The notes under the pieces are model-generated. The model worked only from the letters and a program-made list of their open reading frames with translations, was not told the DNA's origin and did no database searches. 64,000 nt of DNA. Origin: Fimbriimonadaceae bacterium. Lineage in GTDB: Bacteria; Armatimonadota; UBA10988. Location of the stretch: contig JADZEX010000045.1 of NCBI GenBank assembly GCA_020850355.1, forward strand, positions 1-64,000, read 5' to 3'. Of the stretch, positions 5,097 to 59,331 are shown one piece after another. Numbering within the stretch: position 1 is the first letter of the stretch; each line of letters begins with the position of its first letter. A program made the translations under genes and the position numbers.

Positions 5097-5211
5097 TGTT
5101 TCACGTGAAACAGGCGCGTGCCCTGAGAGCGGGCTGTTTCACGTGAAACACCCGCCACGCCGCTGGTGGCGTCGCCCGGCGCAGGAGCGGCGGGCTGTTT
5201 CACGTGAAACA
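5097..5211. other. parS: parS cluster 1 (three ParB-binding sites)
   Basis: Three perfect copies of TGTTTCACGTGAAACA at 5097-5112, 5135-5150 and 5196-5211, in the convergent gap between the DUF721 gene and the peptidase-like gene. The third is extended to a 22-bp palindrome (GGC/GCC flanks). The 16-mer is the classical chromosomal parS sequence bound by ParB/Spo0J, which spreads from it and loads SMC. Confidence 0.93.
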
Positions 5212-5273
5212 GCCAACCCGGTCGGGCACGCGGGCCGTCGCCACGAGCCGCCGCCCGGCGGGCCCGGCGGCGA

Positions 5274-7316
5274 TCAGTTCAGCCGGCCCTCCAGCAGCGC
5301 CGCCAGGAACTCCTGCTGGCCTAGCGCGGTGATCCGCCGGAAGGCCTCCTCGGGCCCGGCGCCCCAACCGGTGGCCTGCAGCAGCAGCGCCAGGGCGTCG
5401 ACTCCGAAGCGGTTGACGAAGGCCTGGGTCATCAACTGCGCCTGCCCGAAGGCGTGGTCGGTCAGTTGGCGGTCGAAGAAGACCGCCGGGTTGTTGATCT
5501 GCTCGATGCCGAGGACGTTGCCGCGGCGGAAGTTGCTGCTGGCGATGGCCATCTGCGCGCCATTGCGTTGGGCCGCGGAGGCGAGGCCCTCCTCGAACCA
5601 GAGCGGGCCGGGGAGGCCATCCTCGGTGAGGGCGTTGATCGCGGCGTGGCCGATCTGATGCCGCAGGTAGCGCCGCAGGTCGAGGGGGTCGGCGACCAGG
5701 AACACGCGGCGGCCGACCGTGGCGGCCTGGCCAAACGCCTGCCGCCCGGCCTGGTCGCGGGGCAGCGCCGCCGTGAGGGCCGTCGCGTCCTCAAACAGCA
5801 GCACCTCGAGGTCCTCGGCAAACCAGCCCCAGGCGGTGGTGAAGCGGTAGGCCTCTTCGGCGGCGTCGAGCTGCGAGCGCAGCAGCGGACCGACCTGCAG
5901 CCGGCGGTCCTGGTCGTGGTAGCGGACCACCACGCCTTGTCCGACCACGGCCGCCGGTGGGTCCGCGGCCGCACTGGTGGCCAGCGCCGTAGCGGCTCGC
6001 AACCAGGCCTGGCTGACTTCGCGGGCACTGGCGGGATACTCTGGGCTCGGCGCCGTGGCGGCGGCGGCCTGGAACAACGCCGCGGCCTGTTGGTAGAACC
6101 GCGCCCGATCACGCGCCGGCTGGGCCAGCAGGTCGCCGCGCGAGACGGCGAGCAGCCCGCGCTGGTGGAGCAGCACCGGCCAGGTCGGCAGGGCTCCGGC
6201 GGCGGCCTGCCACCACTGCTCGCAGAGCACCAGGTCGTTGCGGCGGTAGGCTTCGAGACCGAGCCAGGCGGCAGTCCGCGCCCAGGCCGCGGTGACCGCC
6301 TCGCGGGTCGGCTGTTGCTGCAAGCTGCCCACCGCATTGATGCTGGTGGCAAAGATCGGATACGGCACACGCACTTGCCGGGCATCCGGGGTCGGCGGCT
6401 GCCGCTGCAGCGACTGGTACAACGCGCTGGCCTGCTGGCGGGCGACCGCAGCGGCGTTCGGGCGGCCGGCCGCGTCGTTCAGCCGGGCCACCGCGAGGTA
6501 GACCGCCGGGTCGTCCGGCAGCTCGGTGGCCACCGCGCCGAGCACGGCCGTCGACTCGTCCAGTTTGCCGCTGCCGGTCAGGTAATCGGCGTACCACAGC
6601 CGGAAGGCCAGGTAGACCGAGGCCAGCAGCTTCTGCGCCTCGGCCGGTTCGGTGCGCAGCATGGCGCCGGCCTGCTGCAGCCGCTGCTGGGCGATCTGCA
6701 AGGTCTCGAGCGGCACCACGGCCTCGTCGAGACGGGCCGGCAGAGCGGCGCGCAGACTCGCCTCGAAGGCGGCGCCGTCGGCCCGTACGGCGGCGAACCG
6801 GCGCGGCCGGACCACCACTTGACCGCGACCCCAAGGCAGCAGCGCCGCGAGGTAGCGGCGGGCCGGGTAGGCCACCGCCGGGTCGTGGACCTGCAGCAAC
6901 GGCACGGCGTTGGGGTGGGCGGTGACCAGGTGGCCTTCGACCGCGACTTCGCCGTAGGCATCGTCGACCTGGCCCAGCGCGGCCCAGGCGCCCCGCGGGG
7001 CGGCGCGGCGGCCGTGGACCCAGCGCTCGCGGGCCGTCACGGCAGCCGTCTGAAACCCGAAGGAGCGCGCCAGATCAGTCTCCACCCAGAGCGTGCCGCC
7101 GCGTTCGACCCAGTCTTGCAGCCGGGTCAAGGTGGCCCGGTCGACCGCGGCAGTCGCCAACGAGGTCCAGATGGCCGCGGTGCTGCGTTCGCCCAGCGCC
7201 CGCTGCAACGCGGCCAGATCGCCGGCTGGCACGACGGGGTCGGTCGTCTCGGCAGCCCGGCCGAGACTGGCCACCAGGAGCAACGGCATGACGTTGCACA
7301 GCCGACCGAGGCGCAT
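5274..7316 (-). CDS. Secreted peptidase-MA-like protein with altered HExxH motif
   Basis: A 680-aa protein with an N-terminal signal peptide (MRLGRLCNVMPLLLVASLGRA). The N-terminal part (LQDWVERGGTLWVETD) resembles DUF4159/glutamine-amidotransferase-like folds. The middle is helical and TPR-like. The C-terminus resembles peptidase MA-like gluzincins: a helix YLRHQIGHAAINAL followed by WFEEGLAS, which matches the usual zinc-ligand Glu context. The metal motif reads HQIGH, so the catalytic Glu of HExxH is Gln and hydrolytic activity is doubtful. The start CAT at 7314-7316 is preceded on its strand by GGAG. It lies 62 bp downstream of the Lnt-like gene and is probably co-transcribed. Confidence 0.6.
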   Translation of the reverse strand: MRLGRLCNVMPLLLVASLGRAAETTDPVVPAGDLAALQRALGERSTAAIWTSLATAAVDRATLTRLQDWVERGGTLWVETDLARSFGFQTAAVTARERWVHGRRAAPRGAWAALGQVDDAYGEVAVEGHLVTAHPNAVPLLQVHDPAVAYPARRYLAALLPWGRGQVVVRPRRFAAVRADGAAFEASLRAALPARLDEAVVPLETLQIAQQRLQQAGAMLRTEPAEAQKLLASVYLAFRLWYADYLTGSGKLDESTAVLGAVATELPDDPAVYLAVARLNDAAGRPNAAAVARQQASALYQSLQRQPPTPDARQVRVPYPIFATSINAVGSLQQQPTREAVTAAWARTAAWLGLEAYRRNDLVLCEQWWQAAAGALPTWPVLLHQRGLLAVSRGDLLAQPARDRARFYQQAAALFQAAAATAPSPEYPASAREVSQAWLRAATALATSAAADPPAAVVGQGVVVRYHDQDRRLQVGPLLRSQLDAAEEAYRFTTAWGWFAEDLEVLLFEDATALTAALPRDQAGRQAFGQAATVGRRVFLVADPLDLRRYLRHQIGHAAINALTEDGLPGPLWFEEGLASAAQRNGAQMAIASSNFRRGNVLGIEQINNPAVFFDRQLTDHAFGQAQLMTQAFVNRFGVDALALLLQATGWGAGPEEAFRRITALGQQEFLAALLEGRLN

Positions 7317-7378
7317 CGCGATCTCCAGGTGCCTGCTGCGGCACCGGCCGGGCGCGGCCAGGTGGGCCGGGCCTGTGT

Positions 7379-8743
7379 TCAGTCCAAGAGCGGGTGATAG
7401 GGCAGCCGCCAGCGCGGCGGGGCAAACGCCAGGACGGCCAGCAGGACCGCCGCCAGCCAGCCAGCGAGCCGGCGTTCGGTGGCCAGCAAGAGGCCGCCTC
7501 TGACAATCGGCACCGTGGTGCTGAGCACCTGGTCGCGGGCGCCGCCGCGGTCCGCCGCGGCGACCAGGCTGCCGAAGGGATCGACCACCAGGCTGCCGCC
7601 ATCGCGGGCGCAGCGCACCACGACCATCCCGTTCTCGGCGGCCCGAAGCCGCGCCAACCACGCTAGCCTTTCGTGGTTCGGCGTCGAATCGGCCGGGATC
7701 GCCAAGACGGTGCAGCCCAGCGCGGCGGCCGCCCGAGCCGGGCCGGCCGACCACAGCGCGGCATCCTCCAACGCCCCGAGCCGCCCGAAGCTGGCTTGCG
7801 GCGGGCCCAGCAGCGCGCCGTGCGGCAATGAGCCGCTATCGACGTGGCGGCCGCTGGGTGCGGCGATCAGCATCTGCCGCCGCCCGACGGCGTGCAGGCC
7901 GGTGACCAGCCAACTGCCCAGCTCGCGGGCCACCACACCGACCGCGCCCGGCGTGCTGTCGGGCTGTGCCGCCACCGGCACCGCCGCGGCCGGCCAGACC
8001 ACGACGCGACTGCCGTCGGTGACGACCGCGGCGGTCAACGCCGCCAGCCGTGGCACGCGATCGTCGTGCGCCGCGACCGCTGCCACCTGCAGGTTCTCGC
8101 TCGAACCGCGGTCCAAGCGGTCCAAGCCGGCGGCGACCGTAGCAGCCAGCAGGGCCATCGCGCTGGCCACCACCCGCAGGGCGGCCCGCCGCTGCGGGTC
8201 CAGGATCAGCACCCCGACGGCCGTCCCGACGAAGGTCACCAGGAACGAGACCGCCGCGACGCCACCAATGTGCAGCGCCTGGGCGAGCAGCGCGGCATCC
8301 AGCCGGTAGGCGCCCCACGAGAAGCCCTCGCCCAGTGGGGTCAGTTGCCAGAGGCGTTCGAGCAGGACCCGCCCGGCCGCCAGTCCGGCGGCGACGACCA
8401 GCGCGTTGCCGCGGGCCGCCAGCCAACGACCGAGGGCCAGGAACGCCGCCAGGTCGAGCGCCAACGCCAGGCTCCAGGCCAACCGGGTGCTGCCAGGAGC
8501 CACCTGCCAGCCGCCGGTGATGGTCGCGCCCAGGCAGAGCAGCAGCCAGCAGCAGCCGGTCTGGCGCCGCGTCGCGCGCGTCGCCACCCCGGCGGCGACC
8601 ACCGGGACCAGCCAGATGCTGCGCCCCGCCGGGCCTTGCCACTGCGCCAGCGCCAGCGCCGCGCTGCCCAAGGTGGCCCAGGCGCAGGCTTGCTGCCAGG
8701 TCCACGGTGCGGTCGTTGCGTTGCTTGACTCAGCTTGCTTCAC
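7379..8743 (-). CDS. Apolipoprotein N-acyltransferase-like membrane protein, catalytic triad absent
   Basis: A 454-aa protein with about seven N-terminal hydrophobic segments, a C-terminal nitrilase-like domain and a last transmembrane helix, the architecture of Lnt. The segment LTPLGEGFSWGAYRL and the following helix match Lnt. So does ARLRAAENGMVVVRCARDGG near the C-terminus, the usual RAxE..R..NtG region. The Glu of the WPE motif is replaced (WPAAAVP). The CYE nucleophile region reads ALWSAG. The only lysine in the protein is residue 2, so the catalytic Lys is also missing. This is probably a non-enzymatic Lnt paralogue. It starts with GTG right at the predicted transcription start. Confidence 0.65.
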   Translation of the reverse strand: MKQAESSNATTAPWTWQQACAWATLGSAALALAQWQGPAGRSIWLVPVVAAGVATRATRRQTGCCWLLLCLGATITGGWQVAPGSTRLAWSLALALDLAAFLALGRWLAARGNALVVAAGLAAGRVLLERLWQLTPLGEGFSWGAYRLDAALLAQALHIGGVAAVSFLVTFVGTAVGVLILDPQRRAALRVVASAMALLAATVAAGLDRLDRGSSENLQVAAVAAHDDRVPRLAALTAAVVTDGSRVVVWPAAAVPVAAQPDSTPGAVGVVARELGSWLVTGLHAVGRRQMLIAAPSGRHVDSGSLPHGALLGPPQASFGRLGALEDAALWSAGPARAAAALGCTVLAIPADSTPNHERLAWLARLRAAENGMVVVRCARDGGSLVVDPFGSLVAAADRGGARDQVLSTTVPIVRGGLLLATERRLAGWLAAVLLAVLAFAPPRWRLPYHPLLD

Positions 8744-8749
8744 GAAGGC

Positions 8750-8758
8750 AGTCTAGCA
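8750..8758 (-). promoter_or_regulatory. Extended -10 promoter of the Lnt-like gene
   Basis: On the minus strand TGC is followed by TAGACT. The predicted transcription start falls on or next to the GTG start codon at 8743, so the mRNA would be leaderless. The -35 region is weak (CTGCCG). Confidence 0.4.
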
Positions 8759-9199
8759 CCTCAGGCCGGTGGCGGCAGCCACGCCTGCCTCCCCAGACGA
8801 TCCGCGCGCCGCGCATGTCAACCGCGTCGCGCGAGTCGTTAGGGGCCTGTTTCACGTGAAACGGTTGGCCCGCGCCGTGCACCGCGTTGCGCGAGTCGCT
8901 GCGGGCTGTTTCACGTGAAACGGTTGGCCCGCGCCGTGCGCTGCGTCGAGCGAGTCGCTGGGGGCTGTTTCACGTGAAACAGGCGGCCCGCGCCGTGCAC
9001 CGCGTTGCGCGAGTTGCCGGGTAGCTGTTTCACGTGAAACGGTTGGCCCGCGCCGTGCGCTGCGTCGAGCGAGTCGCTGGGGGCTGTTTCACGTGAAACA
9101 GGCGGTCGGGGCCGTGCGCCGCGGCGGGCGAGGCGTCGAGTCGCTGTTTCACGTGAAACCGGTGTGCCACAGCCGGCCTGGCCACCTGCGCGCGGCCGG

Positions 9200-9229
9200 T
9201 TGACGCCGGCCGTCGGAACCGCGTATCCT
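9200..9229 (+). promoter_or_regulatory. Sigma70-type promoter giving a leaderless transcript
   Basis: TTGACG (9200-9205) and TATCCT (9224-9229) are separated by 18 bp. The predicted +1 is at about 9236, which is the A of the ATG of the next gene. It lies 40 bp after the last parS of the six-site array. Confidence 0.55.
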
Positions 9230-9235
9230 CGCCAC

Positions 9236-10264
9236 ATGGCAGGCTGGACTCGACGCACAGCGCTGTTGGCTCTGCTGGCCGCCGCCGCTCGGGCGGCGCG
9301 GGGGCAGGAGACTGGCGGCACGGCCGAGGTCACCGCCAGACGACAACTTGACGAGGCGCTGCGGGCGGTCGAGCAGCAGACCGGCGTGCGGATCGCGAAT
9401 CAGGCGGCGGTGGCCGAGCGTCCGCTCAGCGGCACCTGGTTCGGCGACTGGCCGGGCCTCCTGGCACGACTCGGCGAGGCGGCCGGCGTTTGGCTCTGTC
9501 GCACCGCGCCGTGGGACTACCTGGCCTTGCCGCAACCGCCGCCGGGTACGGTCTCCGGGGCGGGGCTGCGCTGGCGCTGCGGGCGAGCCCGGGTGATTGG
9601 TCGCGGCGAGCCGGCCGACCCGCGGCGGGTGGTGCTCGAACTGTGGGCCGAGGCCGACCGCGACGAGGAGCTGGCCGCGCTGGTCGGCCTTGACCTCGCC
9701 ACGGTCCGGCTCCGCGAGCTGCCGCCGCCGGCGGGGCTGCCGCTGCCAGAGCATTGCCTGCTGGCCGCGGCGGCCAAACGGCGGCACGGGTTTGTGGGCC
9801 TCCTGGCGTTCGCCGCCCCCACGGACGGCGCGCGGACCGTCACACTGGAATGGACCGCAGTGCGGTATGAGTCCACCGATACGGTGACCACTGAAACGAC
9901 CGTCGCCGACCCGGTCACTGTGGAGCGGGATGGTATTCGGGTGAGCTGGCAGTCCTTTCATACCTGGGGCGGGCGGTGGCGAGCGCGGGCCGCGCTACGC
10001 TATCCGCCGAGTCTGCAGCAGTCCGAACCCTGGCTGACGGCCCTGGCCAGCGGGCCGGCGGGCCGATGGCGGCCGCTCAGCATCACGCCAGGTCCGGCCA
10101 CGGCGACCGACGACGACCGCCTGGAGTGTACCTGCGAGGCGGACTTCGCCAGCGCCGTGGCGCCGCAGCGGGTAATGCTGCAGGTGACCCGCGGGCGCGG
10201 ACCGCTGCAGCGGGCCACCGTGCAGTGGCCAGGGCTGACCCTGCCCGCTGGAGGTGTGCCGTGA
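9236..10264 (+). CDS. Secreted protein of unknown function
   Basis: 342 aa with a signal peptide containing twin arginines (TRRTALLALLAAAARAARG). Residues about 35-95 (LDEALRAVEQQTGVRI ... LLARLGEAAGVW) resemble the STN/secretin short N-terminal domain pattern, but I cannot confirm this. The rest is beta-rich with no motif I recognise. The ATG at 9236 is chosen because it starts the signal peptide and coincides with the predicted +1. The TGA overlaps the GTG of the CHASE2 kinase by 4 nt (GTGA), so the two are one operon and may act in one envelope sensing pathway. Confidence 0.55.
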   Translation: MAGWTRRTALLALLAAAARAARGQETGGTAEVTARRQLDEALRAVEQQTGVRIANQAAVAERPLSGTWFGDWPGLLARLGEAAGVWLCRTAPWDYLALPQPPPGTVSGAGLRWRCGRARVIGRGEPADPRRVVLELWAEADRDEELAALVGLDLATVRLRELPPPAGLPLPEHCLLAAAAKRRHGFVGLLAFAAPTDGARTVTLEWTAVRYESTDTVTTETTVADPVTVERDGIRVSWQSFHTWGGRWRARAALRYPPSLQQSEPWLTALASGPAGRWRPLSITPGPATATDDDRLECTCEADFASAVAPQRVMLQVTRGRGPLQRATVQWPGLTLPAGGVP

Positions 10265-12201
10265 GCGCGGCCCAGCGGACCTCGACGGTGCTCGAACGTG
10301 GCCTCGGCGTGGCGGCGCGGCAGGCCCTGGTGATGGCGGTCGTGGCGGCCGTGCTGGCGATGGTCTTGTCGGCCGAAGGCGCCTTCGAGCCGCTCTCGCG
10401 GTTTGTCAGTGACCGGCGCCTGCGGCGCGACGACGTGGCGGCCTTCCGACGAGGCGAGCTGCAGAGCCCGGCGGTCGCGATCCTCGATGTCCCGGCAATG
10501 CGCCTGGTGGCCTGGCGGGCGGGTGAGCCCGGGGCCCGCGCCGAGCTGGCCGGCCTGCTCCGCCGCCTCAGCAGCCTGGCGCCGCGCGCGGTTGTGCTGG
10601 ACGCCACGCTCGAAAGCAATGGGGTGGACGACGAACTGCTGCAACAGGCGATCCGAGCCAGTGGCAAGGTGGTCCTGGCGGCCGAGTTCGACTCGCCGCG
10701 CCCGAGCGTCCGGGGACTGACCCTGCCGCTGCTGGCGTTCCGCCTGGCGGCCGCCGGTCAGGGCTACCGCTCGTGGACCGTCGACAACGACAGCGTGGCG
10801 CGCCACTTCTCGTTGGCCCTGCCCGAGGTGGCCGAGCTGAGCCTGCCGCTGGTGGGCTGGGCCGTCGCCACCGAGACGCCGCTGGTCGCCGTCCGGAACA
10901 GCCTGCGACGCTACCAGGCGCTGCCGGATGGCCGGGTGCTGGATGACCAGTACCACCTCAACTTCAGCTTCCGGGGACCGCCCGGCACGGGCTTCCGGAC
11001 GGTCCGGCTGCGCGATCTGCCGGATCAGGAGGCGGCGCTGCGGGGCCAGGTGGTGGTGGTCGGGACGCTCGACCAGACCGCGCCCGGGGTGCTGGTCCCG
11101 TTGTCGGCCAGTTGGCGACCCGACTGGCAGGACCGCTGGGCCGAGCCGATGAGCCGCACCGAGCTGCTGGCCGGGGCGATCGACACCTTGCTCGAAGACC
11201 GCGCGGTCCGCGAAGTGCACGGCGGCTCGCTCTACGCCGTAGTGTTCCTCGCCGCCTACCTGGTCGCCCTGGCCAGTCTCGCCACGCCAGGCCGCCAGGC
11301 CGTGATCGTGGCGTTGGCGGTCGGCACGGTCTGGTGGGTGGTGGGGGCCGCTCTCTGGTCGACCCTGCATGTCGACCTGCCGCTGGCCGAGGCGGTCACG
11401 GCGATGCTGTTGTGCCTCGCCGTCGGGCTGTACCAGGGCCTGCACCGCGAGATGGCCGTCTCGCGAGCGGTCGCCGCGCGGGCCGACGCCGAACGCCAGC
11501 GGCTGGCCGAACTGGACAGCGCCAAGCGCGCCGTGCTGGGCACTGTGGTGCACGACCTGAAGGTGCCGGTGGCCATCGTCAAGGGTCAGGCCCTGACGCT
11601 GCTGGCCGACCCGGAGCGCGAACTGGGGCTCGAAGTCCACCAGGAGTTCCTGGAGACGATCGCCGCGCAGTGCGACCGGCTGACGGCGATGGTCGAGGAC
11701 ATCCTGGACACCGACCCCGACCGCCAGTTGACCGTGCATCGCGAGCAGTGCGATCTGGGCAAGCTCGTGCGCCACGTTGTGGCGATGCACGAGGCCACCG
11801 CCAACCGGCACTCCTTCCGGGTCGAGGCGCCCACCAGCGCGGCGGCGATGGTCGATCCGGCGAAGATCTCCCGAGTCCTCAACAACCTCGTCTCGAACGC
11901 GGTCAAGTACAGCCCGCGCGGCGGCGAGGTGATCGTGATCCTCGACCAGCCGAGTCCGGCCGAGGTTGCGATCCGCGTGCGGGACTCGGGGATCGGCATG
12001 ACGCCCGACCAGGTGGCCAAGCTGTTCGGCCTGTTCGTGCGGGTGATCGACAATCCGGCCAGCATTCCCGGCACGGGCGTCGGACTCTACTCCACCAAAC
12101 GCCTGGTCGAGGCGCACGGCGGCCGGATCGAAGTCAGCAGCGAGCGCGGGGCCGGCAGCGAGTTCCGGGTCGTCCTGCCGACTGCCAACGGCACCGCCTG
12201 A
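10261..12201 (+). CDS. CHASE2-domain sensor histidine kinase
   Basis: 646 aa, GTG start overlapping the upstream stop. A first transmembrane helix (about 15-35) precedes a CHASE2-like extracytoplasmic sensor (about 40-330) and further membrane helices (about 330-395). The HisKA domain has its H box HDLKVP near His431. The HATPase domain carries NNLVSNAVKY near 540, DSGIGM near 575 and GTGVGLYSTKRL near 604, so the kinase motifs are complete. No response regulator is encoded nearby. The stop at 12201 lies only 3 nt from the convergent stop of the next gene. Confidence 0.85.
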   Translation: MSAAQRTSTVLERGLGVAARQALVMAVVAAVLAMVLSAEGAFEPLSRFVSDRRLRRDDVAAFRRGELQSPAVAILDVPAMRLVAWRAGEPGARAELAGLLRRLSSLAPRAVVLDATLESNGVDDELLQQAIRASGKVVLAAEFDSPRPSVRGLTLPLLAFRLAAAGQGYRSWTVDNDSVARHFSLALPEVAELSLPLVGWAVATETPLVAVRNSLRRYQALPDGRVLDDQYHLNFSFRGPPGTGFRTVRLRDLPDQEAALRGQVVVVGTLDQTAPGVLVPLSASWRPDWQDRWAEPMSRTELLAGAIDTLLEDRAVREVHGGSLYAVVFLAAYLVALASLATPGRQAVIVALAVGTVWWVVGAALWSTLHVDLPLAEAVTAMLLCLAVGLYQGLHREMAVSRAVAARADAERQRLAELDSAKRAVLGTVVHDLKVPVAIVKGQALTLLADPERELGLEVHQEFLETIAAQCDRLTAMVEDILDTDPDRQLTVHREQCDLGKLVRHVVAMHEATANRHSFRVEAPTSAAAMVDPAKISRVLNNLVSNAVKYSPRGGEVIVILDQPSPAEVAIRVRDSGIGMTPDQVAKLFGLFVRVIDNPASIPGTGVGLYSTKRLVEAHGGRIEVSSERGAGSEFRVVLPTANGTA

Positions 12202-12204
12202 CGG

Positions 12205-13665
12205 CTACTCCATCCCGCGGAACATCGTCGCCAGCATGTCCTGGTAGCGCACCGCCCGGGTCAACGACCGTTTGGCCAGGATCGAGTGCTGGTGCAGCCC
12301 TTCGAGGACGAACTCCATCAGCCCGCCGACCTCCTCGGGCTCCGCGGTCGGGAACGCCGTCTCAACCGCCGCCAACAGTCCCGGCACGGTGGCCAGCCGC
12401 TCGAAGTAGGTCGCGTACGGCAAGTCGTCGCCGACCTCGAGGCTCTGCTCACCGCGGAACCAGTCACTCACGCTGCGGTACAGCGCGCTCTCCTCGTGCG
12501 GGGTCAGGTCGCCGTCGGCGGTGCGGCGGAAGACCTCTGGGAAGACCCGCCGGAAGCTCCGCTTGACGCCCTCGCCGATCAACTGCAGCGCCACCGTGGC
12601 GTTCCCCTCGCGCTCGCCCTCGTAGACCAGCTCCAGCTTCCCCGTGATCGCGGGCAGCATCGCGTACAGATCGCAGATCCGCGGGTAGACCACGGCCTCG
12701 TCCTCGCGCACGGCGCGCCGCTCGAGGTTCGAGACGAGGTTCTCACGGGCGGCGATGGTCAGCCGGGCCGAGACACCGGAGCTCTGGTCGACATAGGCGC
12801 TGTCGCGCGCGGCGAAGGCGATCTCCTCGACCAGCTCCTTGAACAGCGGCCCCACGGCCACCCGCGTCCCACGCTCGACCCACGCCTCCTGGTCGGTGAT
12901 CTGGATCGCCTCCGCCACCGTCTCCGGGTAGTGCGTGATGATCTGACTGTCGATGCGGTCCTTCAGCGGGGTGATGATGGCCCCGCGGTTGGTGTAGTCC
13001 TCGGGGTTGGCGGTGTAGACCATCACAATGTCGAGCGCCAGGCGGACCGGGAAACCGCGGATCTGGACGTCCTTCTCTTCCATGATGTTGAGCAGCCCGA
13101 CCTGGATCCGCGGCTGCAGGTCCGGCAGCTCGTTGATTGCGAAAATGCCGCGATGCGTGCGGGGGATCAGGCCGTAGTGGATCACCTCCTCGTCGCTGAA
13201 GTCGCGCTGCTCGCGGCTGGCCTTGATCGGGTCGATGTCGCCGATCAGGTCGGCGATGCTGACGTCCGGCGTCGCCAGCTTCTCGTTGTACCGCGCTTGC
13301 CGCGGCAGCCACTCGATGGGGGTCGCGTCGCCCAGTTCGCGCACCACCCGCCGGCCGTAGGCACTGACCGGCGCCAGTGGGTCGTCGTGCAGCGGGCTGC
13401 CGGCAATCACCGGCACCTGCGCGTCGAGCAGATCGGTCAACTGTCGCAGCAGGCGGGTCTTCGCCTGGCCGCGTAGGCCGAGCAGAATCAGGTCATGGCG
13501 CGCCAGCAGGGCGTTCACGATCTGGGGGATCACCGTCTCGTCGTAGCCGACCACGCCCGGGAAGAGCTGCTCGCCGCGCTGCAGCTTCTGAAGCAGGTTC
13601 CGCCGCAGTTCGTCCTTCACCGATTCGGTGCGATAGCCCCGGGCCCGTAGTTCGCCAAGTGTCAT
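12205..13665 (-). CDS. MoxR/magnesium-chelatase-like AAA+ ATPase
   Basis: A 486-aa AAA+ protein. Walker A is GLRGQAKT, about 45 residues from the start. It has the subfamily signature GIFAINELPDL (Asn in place of the usual Walker B Asp), then IMEEKDVQIRGFPV and TANPEDYTNRG. This group of magnesium-chelatase-like ATPases usually works with VWA-domain partners as a remodelling chaperone; no partner is visible here. The start is ATG at 13663-13665; longer readings run into parS and are rejected. It ends convergently 3 nt from the kinase gene. Confidence 0.78.
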   Translation of the reverse strand: MTLGELRARGYRTESVKDELRRNLLQKLQRGEQLFPGVVGYDETVIPQIVNALLARHDLILLGLRGQAKTRLLRQLTDLLDAQVPVIAGSPLHDDPLAPVSAYGRRVVRELGDATPIEWLPRQARYNEKLATPDVSIADLIGDIDPIKASREQRDFSDEEVIHYGLIPRTHRGIFAINELPDLQPRIQVGLLNIMEEKDVQIRGFPVRLALDIVMVYTANPEDYTNRGAIITPLKDRIDSQIITHYPETVAEAIQITDQEAWVERGTRVAVGPLFKELVEEIAFAARDSAYVDQSSGVSARLTIAARENLVSNLERRAVREDEAVVYPRICDLYAMLPAITGKLELVYEGEREGNATVALQLIGEGVKRSFRRVFPEVFRRTADGDLTPHEESALYRSVSDWFRGEQSLEVGDDLPYATYFERLATVPGLLAAVETAFPTAEPEEVGGLMEFVLEGLHQHSILAKRSLTRAVRYQDMLATMFRGME

Positions 13666-13791
13666 CGTTGCCACGTCCTGGCCATCAGAATGGTGCGCCA
13701 CCCGCTGCGTGTCCCGTCCCAGCGGCGTCGCGCGAGGCCGCGCCAGCCCCCGCCACGGCACCTTCACCCGGCGCCGCCGGCCGCGGGGCCC

Positions 13792-13841
13792 TGTTTCACG
13801 TGAAACAGCCGCCGGCCGCGGGGCCCGTTTCACGTGAAACA
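13792..13841. other. parS: parS cluster 3 (two sites)
   Basis: Sites at 13792-13807 (perfect) and 13826-13841 (first base C, core perfect), only 34 bp apart, the tightest pair in the window. They lie between two co-directional minus-strand genes. A CCGCCGGCCGCGGGGCCC motif precedes each site, so the pair arose by local duplication. Confidence 0.9.
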
Positions 13842-13870
13842 GCCAGCCCGCCGTGGGGCCGTGGCGGTGC

Positions 13871-14713
13871 TCAGGCGTGGGCCAGCAGCAGCCAGCCGTG
13901 CCAGAGGTGGAACGCCTGCTCGGCGGTCAGGCGCACGCCGGCCTCATCGGGCGGCGCATCGATCCAGTGGATCGGCAAGTTGCCGCTGCTGCCGACCAGA
14001 AAGCCCGGCAGGCCGCGCGACAGCAACTCGATGCTGACCACCAGGTCGGCGCCGACCTGCCAGCCCGCCACGCTGGCTGGCCGGGAGAGCAGCCGGTAGG
14101 CCCGCCGCTTGAGCACCCCGGTGACCAGCGCCTGCGGCACGGCCGCGGCCGACAGCCGGCGGGCCTGGTTGGCGAAGGCCAGCCCGGCGGCCAGCGCCAC
14201 GGCGTCGGCCGCGTCGAGGTGGGCGGTGCCGCCGGTGGTGTGCGCCAGCAGCGGACGCAGCAGCACCAGGCCCGACAGCCGGGTTGGGAACAGAAAGCGG
14301 TAGACCGCCACCTCTTCGCGCTGCAACGGCGCCGGCCAGGGCGCCAGGACCGCCAGGCGCTCGAACTGCACCGGCAAGTCGCCCAGCAGCTCGGCCGCCT
14401 GCGACTGATCCAGCCGCTCGGGGTCGGCGAAGCTCTCGCTGACCAGGTCAAGCAGATCCAACTCGCGCAGGTACCCGACCGCGCGCCAGGCGGTGCGCAG
14501 CCAGGTCGCGGCCTCCGCCAGCGCGGCGACACCGGCCTGATCGCCACGCCGCGCCAGCAGGTAGGCCACATCGCAGAACGCCGCCGGCTGGGCGCGGCAG
14601 CTCTCCAGCAACTCCCGCAGCGCGGCCGCCGGCACCGCGTCGGCCGCCGTCAGCAGCTCCGCCGAGAACCAGCCGGTGCCTGCGCTGAGCCGGTCGAGCA
14701 GCGTGCTGTTCAT
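13871..14713 (-). CDS. Hypothetical protein downstream of glycoside hydrolase
   Basis: 280 aa, Ala/Leu-rich and mostly helical, without a signal peptide or a domain I recognise. The ATG (14711-14713) overlaps the stop of the large glycoside hydrolase gene (ATGA), so it is translated from the same message. A run at the C-terminus is aromatic-rich (FHLWHGWLLLAHA). It may be an accessory protein of the hydrolase, but nothing in its sequence shows that. Confidence 0.55.
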   Translation of the reverse strand: MNSTLLDRLSAGTGWFSAELLTAADAVPAAALRELLESCRAQPAAFCDVAYLLARRGDQAGVAALAEAATWLRTAWRAVGYLRELDLLDLVSESFADPERLDQSQAAELLGDLPVQFERLAVLAPWPAPLQREEVAVYRFLFPTRLSGLVLLRPLLAHTTGGTAHLDAADAVALAAGLAFANQARRLSAAAVPQALVTGVLKRRAYRLLSRPASVAGWQVGADLVVSIELLSRGLPGFLVGSSGNLPIHWIDAPPDEAGVRLTAEQAFHLWHGWLLLAHA

Positions 14714-17700
14714 CCGCCGAGCACCACCACACCCAACTCTGCGGCCCGTTTCGTCCAACCGATCCCGCCGAACACCTGCAGCCAGCCCTCGCGGCCGGTG
14801 CCGTCGTTCTCGTTGACCAACGCCCCAAACCCCAGCCGCCGCCCGGCCCTGGGCTCGCTGACGCCGAGCAGCGCCCAGGGCAGCGCCGCCTCGTAAGTGG
14901 TCACCGCCCCCGCCCGCCGGACCGCGAAGCTGCCCGCCGGCAGCGCCGTGGCGGTCGGCAGCGTGCGCTCGCCGAGGGCCGCGGCACCCAGCGCCAACGC
15001 GACCTCGGTGAATCCGGCCGCCGGCTCACTGCCCGCCAGGGGGTCCACGGCAACCTGCAGCGAGTCGTCCTGCCAGGCCGTTTCGGGCGCCTGCTGCTGG
15101 ACGTGCTGCGCGTCGCGCACCTCGGCCGCCAGGCCCAACGCGGTCGGGCTCCAGGCCAGCCGCACCGTCGCCGCCAGATCGGCATCGTCAGCCGGGCGTC
15201 GGCCGGCGATGCTCTGGTAATCGGTCAGCGCCACCGGCGTGACCTGCGCCCATTCGCGCAAGTCGCCATCGACCGTGATCGCTGGCAGCCGCGGCACCAG
15301 CCAGCCGTTGACCGTCGCCGCCGTCGTCCAGCGCAGCCCGGCCGGGCCTTCGACGGTCACCGCCAGCTCCTGCACCACCCCGGCCGTGCCCGGCACGGCG
15401 GCCCCGCTGGCAGACACCGCCGTCGCCCCGGGCGCCAGCGTCGGCAACGCCACGACCTCTCCCAGCACCTGCACCCGCCAGCCCGCCTGCGGGACGCTCG
15501 TCTGGTTCTGGGCCGCCACCGCCGTGACCAGCCGGCCTTGCTGCCACTGCGGCACCAGCCGCACCGCCAACGGAGCCTCGACGGTCACCGCGGTCGTCGT
15601 GACGGCCGCGCCCAGCCGCACCAGCACGTCGTACTCGCCCGGCGCCGCGTCGGCCGGCACCCGCACTTCCAGCCGTTGCCCGCGCGGTCCGCCAGCGCCA
15701 GCAATCGCCCCGACCGGCTGGGGAGTCGGCCAGCCCGGCGGCACCTCCCAGACCGCCGTGGGCGCCGCCACGGCGGGTCCCGCGGCTCCTGGGCCGGCGC
15801 GCAGTTCGAGCGTCGCCAGCCCGCCCGGCCAGGTCGGCGCCGCCGCCGTCAGCAGCACCGGCGGAGTCACGGTGACGGCTGTGCAGCGCCCCGTCACGAA
15901 GACCGGCGTGCCGCTGACCGCCACCTGCAGGCGCCCCTCCTGCAACGCCACCTGACGCTGCTCGCCGCTGCCGCTCGACAGCTCCACGTTGGCCGCGCCG
16001 GCCAGAGTGAGCGTCACCTCGCGCGGGGCCGTGCTGCTCCAGAGCACCACCGTCCGCTCGCCGTCGGCGCCGACGTACTCCTGCCCGTGGAGCCCGTCGC
16101 CCGGCGAGTGGTCGGCGGCGAAGCGCGGCGCCGCCAGCACCCGATTCATCATCGCCGCCGCCAGGTAGGGCCGCTTCGGGCTGAAGTCCAGGTTGAGCAG
16201 CCCGAAGTTGTCCTCGTTGTAGGCCGGGTTGGTGCCGTCGTTCTGGAAGTCGTACCAGATCACCGGCCCGACGAACGGCAAGGCGCGCGCCAGGCAGACC
16301 ATCCGGACCAGGTAGTCGGCGGTGGTCGCCTCGCTGACGCCCCGCGGATCGTCCTGGTTCGGCCAGCCGATTTCCGTCAGCCAAACGGGCTTGTCGCCGA
16401 TCCCGTAGCGCTGCATCAGGGCCTGCAGCCGCTGCAACTCGCCGACGAAGTCCGACTCCTCGGGACTCCGCGGGTAGCGGTAGGGGTGCACGCTGAGCGC
16501 GTCCATGTACGGCCCGCCGCCGGCCTGCAGGACGGCCTCGATGTACTGGAGGTCGGTCCCGGCCGTGCAGATTCCGACCACGGTGCAGGTCGGGTCAGCG
16601 CGCTTGCAGGCCTGGTAGGTCTTCTGCAGCAGGCGCGTGTAGGCGATTGGATCGGGCTTCGGCTTCCAGAAGCCGATGTTCGGTTCGTTGTAGACCTCCC
16701 AGGCGGAGCAGACGTCCTTGTAGCGCCGCACCATCTGGTAGGCATACTCCGCGAAGGCGGTCTGGGCCGGTTCGCTGGTGGGCGCCTGGCCGTCGTCGTA
16801 GAGGGGATTGCCGTAGTCCAGGATGATCAGCGGCTCGATCCCTTGGGCGCGGGCTTGCCGCAGGTAATGGTCGTTGTACTCGGGGAAGGTGTACTTGCCA
16901 CGCTCCCGCTCAACCGTGGTCCAGCCGTACTCGTCACGCGACCAGCGCGCGCCGCAGCGCGCCAGCAACTGGTAGTTCAGCGGCACCCGGCCCTTGTGCT
17001 GCGCGTAGTGCAGGCACGCCCCGAACGGGTTGCCGGTCTGCGGACCCGCGGCCGCCGCGGGCAGGCGGGCCAGGTTGACCCGCTGTACCGCGTAGTCGTC
17101 GGCCAGCCGCCAGACCAGCGCCAGGGTGCGCCAGCCCGGCGCGGCACCCTCCCAACGCCAGGTGGTGGTGACCGGCTGGCCGCCGGGCAGGGTCACCGTG
17201 CGAAGGCTCTCCTGAACCTGCTCGCCGGCTGCGTCGAGGGCCACCAGGCGCACCGCCAGCGGCGTTTCGCCGGCTGCCCCGGCCCGCCGGTCGCGCCAGG
17301 TCAGTTGCAGCCCCAGCGGCTGCGCACCCGCCGTGGTCCAGCCGCTGGGCGTGGCCGGTTCGACCGTACACTGCACCGCCTGCGCCGCCGGGGCGAGCTG
17401 CTCGATCGTCACCTGGTCGACCCACCAACGCCCCTGGCTCGGCCGGACCGCGGCGTCGACCAGCACCGAGACCAGCGTCAAGGCCCCGTCGAGCTGGCCG
17501 TTGCCGTCGCCACCCCAGTGCCCGGCCGAGGGCCGGTCAAGCGGGCAACGCAGCTCGCGCCAGGCCGTCGACTGCAGCGTGCCGCAGTCGTACTGGTGGT
17601 ACTCCCCGCTGGCGTCGTGCACCCGGACTCGCAGCGGGTTGGCACTGCCGTCGCCCTTGACCTGCATCCGGACCGGACCGCGACCCGTTCCGAGGGCCGC

Positions 17701-24670: not shown

Positions 24671-24686
24671 TGTTTCACGTGAAACA
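24671..24686. other. parS: parS site 4 (single)
   Basis: A single perfect TGTTTCACGTGAAACA between topA and the export operon, both on the plus strand. It lies about 140 bp before the GTG of the adaptor gene. Confidence 0.92.
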
Positions 24687-28891: not shown

Positions 28892-29074
28892 TGTTTCACG
28901 TGAAACAGCACCCCAGCGGACCGGTCGGGATCCCAACCGGCCAGCGCTGTTTCACGTGAAACAGCACCCCCTGACGCGCGTCGGGATCCGTCCGGCCGCG
29001 GCTGTTGCACGTGAAACAGCACCCCAGCGGACCGGTCGGGATTCCAACCGGCCAGCGCTGTTTCACGTGAAACA
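28892..29074. repeat. parS: parS cluster 5: four-site alternating array
   Basis: Sites at 28892-28907, 28948-28963, 29003-29018 and 29059-29074, spaced 56, 55 and 56 bp, in a convergent gap. Site 3 reads TGTTGCACGTGAAACA, one change that the Bacillus consensus TGTTNCACGTGAAACA tolerates. The spacers after sites 1 and 3 are the same 40-bp sequence with one difference; the spacer after site 2 differs, giving an A-B-A pattern. Site 4 sits in a perfect 32-bp palindrome (29051-29082). Confidence 0.92.
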
Positions 29075-32342: not shown

Positions 32343-32456
32343 TGTTTCACGTGAAACAACGCCCCGCCGCGCCGCCGCCGGTGGGCCGGGCGACGGGCGA
32401 GTCGGTGGCCAGCGGCGTGGTGGCGCCGCCCGGCGGCCGCTGTTTCACGTGAAACA
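32343..32456. other. parS: parS cluster 6 (two sites)
   Basis: Perfect sites at 32343-32358 and 32441-32456, 98 bp apart, in the 310-bp divergent gap between cysH and a cyclophilin lipoprotein gene. The rest of this gap holds the cys operator and promoter on one side and the cyclophilin promoter on the other. Confidence 0.92.
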
Positions 32457-33373: not shown

Positions 33374-33443
33374 ACTGGCTCTCGCGGCGGTCGGCCCCGG
33401 GGCCCTGGCACGGCCGCTGTGGCGGCAGAAAGAGCGACAGCGG

Positions 33444-37878: not shown

Positions 37879-38126
37879 TGTTTCACGTGAAACAGCGCCC
37901 GGACCCGGCCCCCAAGCCGGCCTCCGAGCGCGCCGTTGAGCAGCCGAGAACAGCGCGGTCCGCGGGGGATCGGTCGTTGTGCCGCTGGGGACACGCCAAC
38001 ACCGCTCGTCAGGCTGGCTACGGGCGGGCGTCGGCGACCGGGCAGGCCGTCGCCGACATGGTCGGCCGGCCCGCCCCCAAGCGTCCCGCTACCTGCGGCT
38101 TGCGGCGCGGTGTTTCACGTGAAACA
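37879..38126. other. parS: parS cluster 7 (two sites)
   Basis: Perfect sites at 37879-37894 and 38111-38126, 232 bp apart, in the 320-bp convergent gap between the mutarotase-like gene and tatC. I see no gene, promoter or other element in the DNA between them. Confidence 0.92.
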
Positions 38127-42311: not shown

Positions 42312-42463
42312 TGTTTCACGTGAAACAGGGCGCGCGGCGCACAGGGCCGGCCGGCGAGTCCCAGCCGGCCACGGCTGTTTCACGTGAAACAGCCGCGGTG
42401 CCGGGCAGGCACTGTCCAGATGGCAACGCGGTGGCCGAAGCCGACACTGTTTCACGTGAAACG
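42312..42463. other. parS: parS cluster 8 (three sites)
   Basis: Sites at 42312-42327, 42376-42391 (inside a 24-bp palindrome) and 42448-42463 (last base G), spaced 64 and 72 bp, filling a 167-bp convergent gap. The last one ends 5 bp before the stop codon of the GNAT gene. Confidence 0.92.
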
Positions 42464-49120: not shown

Positions 49121-49712
49121 GTCGGCTGGCCGAGCACCTCTACTGGATCGGGCGGTATGTCGAGCGGGCCGACGACCAGGTGCGGCTGGCCAGCGCGCTC
49201 TACTTCGGTGGCACGCACATCGGGTTGTTGGGCGATCCACAGTTGCCAGCCGACCTGGTCGGCGTGCTCGGCGCCGCGCCGGATCAGCCTCCCTTTGCGA
49301 GCTTGGGCGAGGCCGTCGAGTGGTGCGTCTGCGACCCGGCCAACCCGTCCTCGGCGGCAAGCTACCTGCAGGCCGCCCGCGAGAACACCCGCCGGGCGCG
49401 CGAAGTCCTGTCGCTGGAGCTGTGGGAGATCATCAGTGAAGCGACCATGCGACTGCTGGAGTTCCGGACCCGCCAGGCCGCGGTCGAGGAGGACCTGCTG
49501 GCCGTGCCGTGGTGGACGCGGGCCTACTACGGGGTCGTAGAGAGCGCTCTGCCGCGCGACGAGGCGCGGGCGGTGTTGCGGCTGGGGGTGGATACGAGCG
49601 CGCTGACCTGACGCTGCGGCTGCTGATCCTGGGCGCCTCGCATCGCGAGGTGGGCGACGCCGACCCGGCGGCGGCGCACTTCTGGATGCTCCTGTTGAAG
49701 GTCTGCGGCGCG
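49114..49712 (+). pseudogene. Decayed alpha-E domain protein
   Basis: Starts with ACG where homologues have the ATG of MLSRxAE (TLSRLAEHLYWIGRYVERAD). It continues through ARENTRRAREVLSLELWE and VVESALPRDEARAVLRLG, then shifts frame near 49588 into GGYERADLTLRLLILG and HFWMLLLKVCGA. It runs out where a transglutaminase-like sequence begins in a third frame. Alpha-E genes normally sit between a circularly permuted ATP-grasp gene and a transglutaminase gene, as here. Confidence 0.82.
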
Positions 49713-50173
49713 ACGACCCCCGCGAGACCGCCGAGCGGATCATCGCCTGGCTGCGCAGCCAGTTGGCGTACGAGCGCGGCACCACCTCGGTCGACACGCC
49801 GGTCGATGAAGTGCTGCGCCGGGGCCGCGGCGTCTGTCAGGACTATGCGCATCTGGGCTGTGCGTTGCTGCGGGCGGCCGGGCTGGCGGCGCGCTATGTC
49901 TCAGGTTACTACCCTGCCCGGCAGTTGGCGGTCGGCGAAGCCGCGGTGGGTGAAGGGCACGCCTGGCTCGAGGTCCTGCTGCCGCCGCTCGGTTGGGTCG
50001 GCTACGACCCGACCAACGCCTGCCCGCCCAACCCTTCCTGGATCAAAGTCGGCCACGGCCGCGACTACCGCGATGTGCTGCCGCTCCGCGGGGTCTACTT
50101 CGGCAACGCCGGCCAGCAGATGCAGGTCAGCGTGACCATCGAGCGGCTGCCCGATTGGCTCGGAGGCCAGTAG
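49712..50173 (+). pseudogene. Truncated transglutaminase-like protein
   Basis: Only the C-terminal half of a transglutaminase-like protease is left (from ETAERIIAWLRSQLAYERGTT). Its catalytic triad region is intact: GVCQDYAHL (Cys), GEGHAWLEV (His) and GYDPTN (Asp), followed by a normal C-terminus. The N-terminal beta domain is missing and the frame is joined to the alpha-E relic. A TTG at 49763 could start a 136-aa product, but no ribosome site is evident. Confidence 0.75.
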
Positions 50174-50193: not shown

Positions 50194-50275
50194 TGTTTCA
50201 CGTGAAACACCGCTCCGCGGTGGCCTGGGTGGACCGGCCGGGCGTCGGCCGCGGCGATCCGTTTCACGTGAAACA
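50194..50275. other. parS: parS cluster 9 (two sites)
   Basis: Sites at 50194-50209 (perfect) and 50260-50275 (first base C, core perfect), 66 bp apart, in the 105-bp convergent gap after the transglutaminase relic. The second ends 3 bp before the stop codon of the ligase gene. Confidence 0.92.
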
Positions 50276-50278
50276 GAC

Positions 50279-52405
50279 CTATCGCGCGCAGCGCAGCTCG
50301 CGCTGCGCGCGGTCGATCCCGCTGACCAGCCCGTTGACTTCCTGCCGCTCCGATTCGCGCAGTCCCTGCTGCTCCAGCAACACCTGTCGCTCGGCAGCGG
50401 GCAGGCTGGCGACCAGGCCTTCCTGTTCGCGCCAGGTGGCGAGGTACTTCTCGAAGTCCGGCAGCGCGCGGGCATAGGCGTCGCAGGCCGGACCGGCCTG
50501 GCCCGCCTGGCGGTACAACTCGGCCAATCTGAAGAGCCCGTAGCCGTGGGTCGGCTCGAAGGTGTAGCCGGTCAGCGGGGCGGCACTGCTGAGGGCCGGC
50601 GAAGTAGCCAGGGCGTCGAGCCGCTGGTAGACCGCGATCGCCTCGGCGCGGCGACCGGCTTGCGTCAGCAACTCGCCCAACTGCAGGTAGCCTTGCAGGT
50701 GCAACGGGCTGAGCGTCGCCGACCGCAGCGACCAGTCGAGGGCCGCCGGCAAGTCGCCCCGGGCGGCTTCGAAGGCGGCGCGCCGGTAGGCGATGCGGGC
50801 GCTGGTCGGACGGCACGCGAAGGCCCGGTTGTAGGCGCGGGCCGCCAGCACCGGGTCACCGCTGGCCGCCGCCAACCCGGCCAGGTCCTCCCAGGCCGGA
50901 CCGCTCGCCGGCAGCCCGGCGACGGCCGCCTGCAGCTCCTGCCGCGCGGTCAGCAGCGCGCCGCTGGCGATGGCTCGTTGCGCCGCGGCCCGGTGGGCCT
51001 CCGCCCGCGCGGCGCTGCCGGTCACGAGCAGGACCAGCAGGCCCGCCGCGGCGACCAGCCAGCGGCCCGCCGGGGCGTCTGTTTCACGTGAAACAGCCGG
51101 CGCCGCCAGCGCGGCCAGCGCCGTCAAGCTGAGTGGCACGGCCGTCACCAGCCAGCCGCAGTCCAGGGCGTGGTGCAGCGCGAAGCCGAGCGTGGCGGCC
51201 ACCAGGCCGTAGCCGGCTGACCGTCGCCGCGGGTCGCCGGCCAGCGCCGCCCGCCAGCCCAGCCGCAGCCACCCGGCGAGCAGCAGCAGGTGGGCCAGCA
51301 GGGCCCCCCAGCCTGCTTCAGCAGCGATCTGCAGGTAGCCGTTGTGGGCGTGCTGCGTGTACGCCCCCCGGGCGAAACCGCCGTAGGCTTGGACCCAGCC
51401 GCCGGCACCGACGCCGAGCCAGGGGGCCTGGGCGATCAGGTCGACCGTGCCCTGCCAGGTCAGCAGCCGGAAGTTGTTGGACCGCGCCTGTTGCAGGCCG
51501 CCGAGCAGGCGCGAGCCGAACGGCGAAATGAGCAGGACCAGCAGCCCGAGCAGCGTCAGCGTGACCAGCGCGGCGGCCAGTCGCGGGCGGCCCGCGCGGG
51601 CCAAGGTTAGCCCGCAGGCCAGCAGCCCGGCGACCAGACCCAGTTGAGCGCCGCGCGAGCCCGTCAGGAGCAGCGCCAGGAAGGCCAGGCCGACGACGCC
51701 GGCCACCAGCCAGCGCAGCTTGCGGCGCGGCTGTTGCACAGCCTGCCGCCGCAGCCACTCCGCGGCGACCGTCTCCCCACCGGCCCGGACCCAGGCCGCG
51801 GCCGCGGCCGGCAGCACCACCAGCAGGTAGCAGCCCGCCTGGTTCGGGTTGGCGAAGCCGGCGAAGACCCGCCAGTTGAGCTCCCCGCTGCGCAGGTGTG
51901 GCAAAAACTCCTGCAGGGCCCGCAGCCCGACCACCGCCGCGCCGGCACCGAGACCGCTGCAGACGGCGGCCGGCCGCGCCCGCGCCGTCGCCAGGGCCGC
52001 CAGGCAGCAGAGCCCGAGGCGGGCCAGCTCGACGAGTCCGGCGGCGAAGTCGGCCGGGTAATGCGTCGCCAGGGGCGGCCCACGGAGCACGGCGGGCAGC
52101 GACGCACCGGCTCGCGGGACGGCGATCGACAGGGCGGCGAGCAGCAGGAACGCCAGCCAGGCCCCGAGCGGCACTCGCCGGAGTGCCGGCCGGCTGAGCG
52201 CGGCGAGCAGCAGCAGCGCCGCCAGCCCGGCGCGGCCCCAGAGGACGGCCGCGTTGGGCAACTCGTCGAGGACCAGGCCGGTGCCGAAGACTGGGGCCAG
52301 GGCCACCGCGACTGCGACCAGGTAGTCGGCGAGGTGCCACCGGGCCAGCGGCGCGGGCGCTGCCAGCGGAGGGGGCGACTCGGCCGGCGGGCGGCGGCGG
52401 GGCAT
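50279..52405 (-). CDS. O-antigen-ligase-like membrane protein with TPR tail
   Basis: 708 aa. About ten or more transmembrane helices occupy residues 25-430. The Wzy/WaaL-type signature region includes FAGFANPNQAGCYLLVVLP, LLTGSRGAQLGLVAGL and GVGAGGWVQAYGG...HAHNGYLQIAAEAGW, with a conserved periplasmic His. After a last helix near 455 come TPR-like repeats (about 470-680). It likely transfers or polymerises a surface glycan. The coding sequence contains a parS site at 51080-51095 (VSRET in a loop between helices). The ATG lies 2 nt after the recJ stop. Confidence 0.8.
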   Translation of the reverse strand: MPRRRPPAESPPPLAAPAPLARWHLADYLVAVAVALAPVFGTGLVLDELPNAAVLWGRAGLAALLLLAALSRPALRRVPLGAWLAFLLLAALSIAVPRAGASLPAVLRGPPLATHYPADFAAGLVELARLGLCCLAALATARARPAAVCSGLGAGAAVVGLRALQEFLPHLRSGELNWRVFAGFANPNQAGCYLLVVLPAAAAAWVRAGGETVAAEWLRRQAVQQPRRKLRWLVAGVVGLAFLALLLTGSRGAQLGLVAGLLACGLTLARAGRPRLAAALVTLTLLGLLVLLISPFGSRLLGGLQQARSNNFRLLTWQGTVDLIAQAPWLGVGAGGWVQAYGGFARGAYTQHAHNGYLQIAAEAGWGALLAHLLLLAGWLRLGWRAALAGDPRRRSAGYGLVAATLGFALHHALDCGWLVTAVPLSLTALAALAAPAVSRETDAPAGRWLVAAAGLLVLLVTGSAARAEAHRAAAQRAIASGALLTARQELQAAVAGLPASGPAWEDLAGLAAASGDPVLAARAYNRAFACRPTSARIAYRRAAFEAARGDLPAALDWSLRSATLSPLHLQGYLQLGELLTQAGRRAEAIAVYQRLDALATSPALSSAAPLTGYTFEPTHGYGLFRLAELYRQAGQAGPACDAYARALPDFEKYLATWREQEGLVASLPAAERQVLLEQQGLRESERQEVNGLVSGIDRAQRELRCAR
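51080..51095. other. parS: parS site 10 inside a coding sequence
   Basis: A perfect TGTTTCACGTGAAACA within the O-antigen-ligase-like gene, encoding V-S-R-E-T at about residues 437-442. That is between two membrane helices, in a flexible Ala/Pro-rich loop. It is the only one of the 32 sites inside a gene. Confidence 0.93.
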
Positions 52406-54690: not shown

Positions 54691-54785
54691 TGTTTCACGT
54701 GAAACAGCCGCCGCCTGGGCAGGCCGGCAGCGACCCACGCCGGGCGCCCCGGCCCGGGCAGCCGCGTGCTGTTTCACGTGAAACC
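54691..54785. other. parS: parS cluster 11 (two sites)
   Basis: Sites at 54691-54706 (perfect, within a perfect 32-bp palindrome 54683-54714) and 54770-54785 (last base C), 79 bp apart, in the divergent gap between the LapA-like gene and hom. Confidence 0.92.
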
Positions 54786-54866: not shown

Positions 54867-54895
54867 GCCGCTTCCGAAGCATGGGAAGCTGGCGC

Positions 54896-59111: not shown

Positions 59112-59151
59112 GCAGCGCCCGTTGGCCGACGAACAGCCGGCCCACCGTACC

Positions 59152-59331
59152 TGTTTCACGTGAAACACCAGCGGGCCAGGCGGCGCGGCACCCGCTGGAC
59201 CAGATGGCTGTTTCACGTGAAACAGCGGCTGCCGCCCGGCTTGTTGGCGGGCCTCACCTGTTTCACGTGAAACACCAGCGGGCCAGGCGGCGCGGCACCG
59301 GCCGGAACAGGCGCCTGTTTCACGTGAAACA
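59152..59331. repeat. parS: parS cluster 12: four-site array
   Basis: Four perfect sites at 59152-59167, 59209-59224, 59259-59274 and 59316-59331 (spacing 57, 50, 57 bp) in a convergent gap. The spacers after sites 1 and 3 begin with the same 25 bp or so (CCAGCGGGCCAGGCGGCGCG...), so a unit of about 107 bp was duplicated. Site 4 lies in a perfect 26-bp palindrome (59311-59336) touching the stop codon of the next gene. Confidence 0.93.

What the first reader, a model, noticed from the sequence alone, without database searches (positions are those of the whole stretch)
5097..59331. Exceptional origin-proximal parS domain: 32 sites in 54 kb
Reading the window I find 32 copies of the chromosomal parS palindrome (31 with a perfect 14-bp core, 23 with a perfect 16-bp match) in 12 loci. 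Well-studied genomes carry from one to about twenty in the whole chromosome (about ten in Bacillus subtilis, about twenty in Streptomyces). Chance cannot explain even two. All six protein-gene convergent gaps longer than a few bases carry a cluster, so placement looks selected to avoid genes and promoters. This could form one very long ParB condensate and SMC-loading zone on this side of oriC.
Basis: partly seen in the sequence, partly recalled or inferred. Interest (0 to 1): 0.95.

Follow-up and report, generated by a model that had tools for sequence, protein, structure and literature searches.

The report
Record-dense bacterial centromere around replication origin
This uncultured bacterium carries about 156 copies of the DNA site that its chromosome-segregation protein ParB should recognise, mostly packed around the replication origin; this is more than twice the highest published count I found, and it offers a natural test of why bacteria keep more than one such site.

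Summary
The window starts at oriC (dnaA-dnaN-recF at 648-4467).

The phenomenon is larger than reported. The draft genome (6.67 Mb, probably Armatimonadota) has 156 perfect cores. The two contigs that meet at oriC hold 95 in 270 kb, on both arms. Beyond the five densest contigs, the other 5.9 Mb holds about 24. There is one canonical ParA-ParB pair and one SMC.

Cores are nearly invariant while cluster flanks are unrelated. 119 of 127 sites are intergenic, and every convergent gap of at least 60 bp beside oriC is occupied. This fits selected, independently established ParB-loading sites. It does not fit a transposon, RNA hairpins or a local duplication.

Same-family relatives keep one or two variant sites beside parAB, so the expansion is recent on that scale. 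A second Armatimonadota lineage has 89, apparently independently.

It is an ordinary chromosomal ParABS system at an extreme of site number. The closest known case is Streptomyces (11-65 sites). ParB binding, spreading and SMC loading are inferred; none was measured.

The parts
648..1901 (+). dnaA; marks oriC at the left end of the window
   Evidence: TIGR00362, 466-481 bits; DnaA-box-like TTATCCAC[T/G] at about 462 (-) and 2097 (+)
2216..3340 (+). dnaN
   Evidence: TIGR00663, 314.5 bits
3340..4467 (+). recF
   Evidence: TIGR00611, 322.9 bits
5097..5211 (.). parS cluster, 3 sites (5097, 5135, 5196), convergent gap
8848..9160 (.). parS array, 6 sites, 59-60 bp spacing with repeated spacers, divergent gap
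13792..13841 (.). parS pair, codirectional gap
24671..24686 (.). single parS, codirectional gap (a 3-mismatch possible relic at 24630)
28892..29074 (.). parS array, 4 sites (the one at 29003 with one core mismatch), convergent gap
32343..32456 (.). parS pair, divergent gap
37879..38126 (.). parS pair 232 bp apart, convergent gap
42312..42463 (.). parS cluster, 3 sites, convergent gap
50194..50275 (.). parS pair, convergent gap
51080..51095 (.). single parS inside the Wzy_C-like gene 50279-52405
54691..54785 (.). parS pair, divergent gap
59152..59331 (.). parS array, 4 sites, convergent gap

Best explanation
The sites are functional chromosomal parS sites, the ParB-loading centromere of this bacterium's ParABS-SMC system. 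They have been multiplied to about 156 copies in small arrays (1-6 sites, typically 50-60 bp apart), placed every 5-6 kb between genes on both sides of oriC. Likely mechanism: ParB dimers bind each parS, close into CTP-dependent clamps and slide onto neighbouring DNA. With a loading array every ~5 kb the sliding zones should overlap, giving one continuous ParB-coated domain of at least 270 kb for ParA to pull on and for SMC to load at. Convergent gene ends are preferred, plausibly because ParB there hurts expression least. Shown here: the sites, their purity, their oriC-centred distribution, their placement, the ParA/ParB/SMC genes, and the contrast with relatives. Inferred: binding, sliding, overlap, SMC loading and the reason for the placement.
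For: The genome has 156 perfect cores and none of the reversed control. The single ParB is canonical: it matches solved Spo0J/ParB structures at 1e-49 to 1e-55, with the ParA-stimulating LGKGL start and the GERR and ENLQR CTP-site motifs. ParA is next to it and SMC is on C19 (902 bits). Density is highest at oriC: 95 sites in the 270 kb touching it. 119 of 127 sites are intergenic although genes cover over 90% of the main contigs, and gaps of at least 60 bp are occupied 14/14 when convergent against 20/79 otherwise, p = 9e-8. Purifying selection: cores are almost all perfect, about a dozen copies have 1-3 mismatches and nearly all of these lie inside arrays, while flanks of 58 clusters are unrelated except in two pairs. 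Same-family G001 and G003 keep 1-2 variant sites beside parAB in a syntenic yidC-parA-parB block.
Against: No binding, spreading or Hi-C data. The assembly is a 117-contig draft, so contigs beyond the two at oriC are not ordered and the outer reach is uncertain. Bacillus work suggests many scattered loading sites promote SMC collisions (PMC8357415), so such an arrangement should carry a cost that this model does not explain. Sites in divergent gaps weaken the idea that placement only protects promoters.
Confidence: 0.85

Rival explanations
1. parS expansion is neutral or selfish: extra sites arise by slippage and recombination near the origin, where they are tolerated, and accumulate without adding function.
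For: Some arrays clearly grew by local duplication (8848-9160; 10 clusters with internal repeats) and the C46 and C59 ends share an identical 127-bp array end. Extra parS are tolerated within about 600 kb of the native site in other bacteria (PMC7333895).
Against: Neutral copies should decay: flanks of most clusters are unrelated, yet cores stay perfect. Close relatives have 0-2 sites, so accumulation is not a general outcome.
Confidence: 0.2
2. The palindromes act as RNA 3'-end hairpins or bidirectional transcription terminators at convergent gene ends.
For: All 14 convergent gaps of at least 60 bp beside oriC carry them, and one array folds strongly as RNA (z = -9.8).
Against: Any palindrome array folds. 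Degenerate copies show no compensatory changes; no T-tract terminator overlaps a site in the 15 kb scanned; 22 sites are in divergent gaps; the sites concentrate at oriC although convergent gaps occur everywhere (C19: 0 of 10 occupied).
Confidence: 0.04
3. A mobile element or an assembly artefact multiplied the site.
For: The assembly is a fragmented draft, and two contigs end in the same array.
Against: No shared sequence beyond the site between clusters except two pairs; the flank preference of the oriC sites recurs at sites on other contigs; contamination is estimated at 2%.
Confidence: 0.03
4. The sites serve a second ParB-like protein, such as a nucleoid-occlusion factor, rather than ParB.
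For: The ParB hits the Noc model (235.6 bits), but below its cut-off of 315.
Against: Only one ParB-family protein is found; it has the ParB-type LGKGL start and parA beside it, and the site matches parS.
Confidence: 0.03

Closest known systems
Streptomyces origin island (S. albidoflavus J1074 and relatives; PMC8743542)
   Same: Canonical parS in small arrays a few kb apart around oriC; 11-65 sites, mean 22.8. Counted here: 50, 62 and 69 perfect cores in three Streptomyces; array anatomy is very similar in S. albidoflavus NRRL B-1271.
   Different: Here 156 perfect cores, at most 31 in 54 kb of one contig against 20 in the Streptomyces contig examined, and on both arms (40 and 55 on the two oriC contigs), whereas Streptomyces places about 80% to the right of oriC; different phylum.
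Chthonomonadaceae bacterium SKYG99 (G305, very probably the same as G113), Armatimonadota
   Same: 89 perfect cores in 3.7 Mb, arrays often at 58-bp spacing, parS just downstream of parB.
   Different: Different family; flank consensus CC-core-GG rather than CT-core-AG; array units shared between loci; relatives in its family have 0-2, so apparently an independent expansion.
Bacillus subtilis scattered parS
   Same: Multiple parS spread over a wide origin region, ParB-SMC loading.
   Different: Eight sites over about 0.75 Mb (PMC8357415); far fewer sites.
Myxococcus xanthus parS cluster
   Same: Many sites near the origin (22; PMC3899335).
   Different: A compact cluster carried on a 3.12-kb probe rather than tens of dispersed arrays.

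Membership tests
Chromosomal ParABS centromere (parS/ParB) | 16-bp palindromic parS, TGTTNCACGTGAAACA | tested here: met
Chromosomal ParABS centromere (parS/ParB) | Sites concentrated near oriC | tested here: met
   dnaA at window 648-1901, rpmH/rnpA at the facing C96 tip; 95 of 156 on the two oriC contigs
Chromosomal ParABS centromere (parS/ParB) | ParB with CTPase fold, HTH and ParA-stimulating N-terminus, encoded next to ParA | tested here: met
   by sequence only:
Chromosomal ParABS centromere (parS/ParB) | ParB binds these sites and spreads with CTP | not testable with these tools
   needs in vitro binding or ChIP-seq
ParB-dependent SMC loading zone | SMC encoded in the genome | tested here: met
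   TIGR02168, 902 bits at C19
ParB-dependent SMC loading zone | SMC loads at parS and aligns the arms | not testable with these tools
   needs ChIP-seq or Hi-C
Mobile repeat (MITE or transposon) | Shared element sequence beyond the core at dispersed copies | tested here: not met
   only 2 pairs among 58 clusters share flanks
Intrinsic terminators | Stem-loop with T tract; compensatory stem variation | tested here: not met
   (terminator scan on window 1-15000 only)

The most novel reading that the evidence does not exclude
The origin region is a regional centromere: ParB loaded at dozens of arrays forms one continuous nucleoprotein domain of several hundred kb that moves as a body and loads SMC from many points. 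Two Armatimonadota lineages would have evolved this independently from ancestors with one or two sites.
Probability: 0.35. Interest if true: 0.85.

Novelty: new variant of a known kind. Interest (0 to 1): 0.62.

Why it matters
A 2020 review (PMC7333895) lists as open why parS number varies when one site often suffices, and what drives clustering. Here is a natural extreme (156 sites) with same-family relatives at about 0-2 and an apparently independent second expansion (89), so the question becomes comparative. The placement data (every convergent gap of at least 60 bp beside oriC filled, most other gaps empty) give a quantitative rule for where a ParB-loading site is tolerated. The arrangement also challenges the expectation that many scattered loading sites are counterproductive because SMC complexes collide (PMC8357415).

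Tried and rejected
Naming the organism directly: its own records may be left out of the collection scan; the phylum was inferred from the match of G113 and SKYG99 in genome size and site count plus 82-94% identical array sequence, though L109's own contig was not among the stretches fetched. Helical phasing of spacings: no convincing 10.5-bp periodicity, only a preferred spacing of 50-60 bp. GC skew to order contigs: uninformative. A ParB substitution (ENLQREN instead of ENLQRED) looked unusual within the phylum sample but occurs in ParBs elsewhere, so no weight is put on it. A family-wide variant parS hiding in the relatives in large numbers: not found within two mismatches; G001 and G003 have only 1-2 variant sites near parAB. 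Terminator, mobile element and chance explanations were rejected as described. Papers: none found that mentions both Armatimonadota and parS sites, or a count above 65; the library holds open-licence papers only.

Full report
OBSERVATION. The window holds 32 parS sites in 12 clusters between 5097 and 59331: 31 perfect GTTTCACGTGAAAC, 23 perfect 16-mers, and one core with a single mismatch. Shuffles give about 0.01 matches.

WHERE IT IS. dnaA (648-1901), dnaN and recF lie at the left end of the window, and DnaA-box-like sequences lie at about 462 and 2097. The window is the left 64 kb of a 91,965-bp contig (C46). A second contig, C96, begins about 200 bp before rpmH (read directly from the sequence printed) and continues rnpA-yidD-yidC, then parA-parB. 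By the usual dnaA-rpmH arrangement the two contigs meet at oriC, pointing away from each other; this join is inferred.

SIZE. The genome (6.67 Mb, 117 contigs, 95% complete) has 156 perfect cores and none of the reversed control. C46 has 40, C96 has 55, C22 has 22, C19 has 8 and C59 has 7. The other 5.9 Mb has about 24. Per 20 kb away from oriC, C46 holds 11, 8, 12, 4, 5 (last bin part-filled) and C96 holds 10, 13, 6, 4, 6, 4, 10, 0, 2. Contigs beyond C46 and C96 are not ordered, so the outer limit is unknown.

THE PARTNERS. One ParB-family protein was found, 299 aa, with LGKGL, GERR and ENLQR motifs and clear similarity to solved Spo0J and ParB structures. From memory of the ParB/Noc specificity work summarised in PMC7333895, the specificity positions R173, T179 and G201 (Caulobacter numbering) are conserved and position 184, which varies among ParBs, is K. 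ParA is adjacent and SMC is on C19.

SELECTION. Of the 127 sites placed against gene calls on six contigs or so classified, 119 are intergenic although genes cover 91-94% of the five main contigs. In C46 plus C96, every convergent gap of 60 bp or more (14 of 14) holds parS, against 13 of 52 codirectional and 7 of 27 divergent gaps; Fisher p = 9e-8. Among 58 clusters only two pairs share flanking sequence, and only ten have internal repeats. Cores are nevertheless nearly invariant, and the few degenerate cores sit almost entirely inside arrays, without compensatory changes. Conserved cores in diverged flanks mean the sequence itself is maintained, as expected for a protein-binding site. The gene calls come from a simple codon-usage model written here, so individual start sites are approximate, and a few sites at contig ends fall outside any classified gap.

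EVOLUTION. In 291 genomes of the phylum, this genome has 156, one other (G113) has 89 and none of the rest exceeds 13. Same-family G001 and G003 have no perfect core but keep variant sites (GTTGCACGTGCAAC, GTTGCACGTGAAAC) beside parAB, in a block syntenic with yidD-yidC-parA-parB here. The simplest history is an ancestor with one or two sites beside parAB and a large expansion in this lineage. A scan for triple arrays across GTDB species, followed by counts in 50 of the genomes found, gave 89 in Chthonomonadaceae SKYG99, which matches G113 in size and count and therefore suggests Armatimonadota as the phylum. It gave 50-69 in three Streptomyces, 49 in Enteroscipio rubneri and 40 in a Selenomonadaceae. 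The flank consensus differs between the two Armatimonadota lineages (CT/AG here, CC/GG in G113), consistent with independent expansions.

MECHANISM. By established ParB biology, each site loads ParB clamps that slide for kilobases (about 15 kb according to the abstract of PMC9242446). Median distances between loci of 4.7 kb (C46) and 5.9 kb (C96) would make sliding zones overlap. I therefore expect one continuous ParB domain over at least 270 kb, serving ParA and SMC. This is inference.

COMPARISON. The published maximum I found is 65 sites, in S. albidoflavus J1074, called 'remarkable' (PMC8743542). With a strict 14-mer count, its relative NRRL B-1271 has 62, at most 20 in 54 kb on the contig examined, against 31 here. 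The kind is known; the extent, two-sidedness and phylum are new. The survey was not exhaustive, so I do not claim an absolute record.

VERDICT. A real, strongly selected, extreme parS expansion in an otherwise canonical ParABS-SMC system.

Noticed in passing
window 48686-50173: Three short consecutive ORFs match only parts of CP_ATPgrasp_2 (304-374 of 374), Alpha-E (62-152 of 294) and a transglutaminase core: possibly a decayed or frameshifted operon.
   Followed up: no
window 32570-35913: Three cyclophilin-type prolyl isomerase genes in a row, the last with a long N-terminal part of unknown kind.
   Followed up: no
G000 C46 right tip and C59 right tip: Both contigs end in the same 127 bp of parS array, so an identical array end occurs at two places in the assembly, a possible sign of recombination between arrays.
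   Followed up: partly
G113 (Chthonomonadaceae-like), contigs C17, C56, C82, C89, C100, C103, C113: Arrays at seven loci share their spacer units, unlike in the window's genome, so arrays there seem to have been copied between loci; many contigs break at arrays.
   Followed up: partly
G000 C66:3751 and 3790 (L082): Two parS cores 39 bp apart lie inside a well-scoring gene, with flanks unlike the rest on one side.
   Followed up: no
G017, G022, G046, G079: Several relatives in the phylum give 4-9 ParB-family matches each while the window's genome has one.
   Followed up: no
L137 (Enteroscipio rubneri) and L124/L148 (Selenomonadaceae Tb.RUG.10): 49 and 40 perfect parS cores in 2.8-Mb genomes: further high counts outside Streptomyces.
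   Followed up: no
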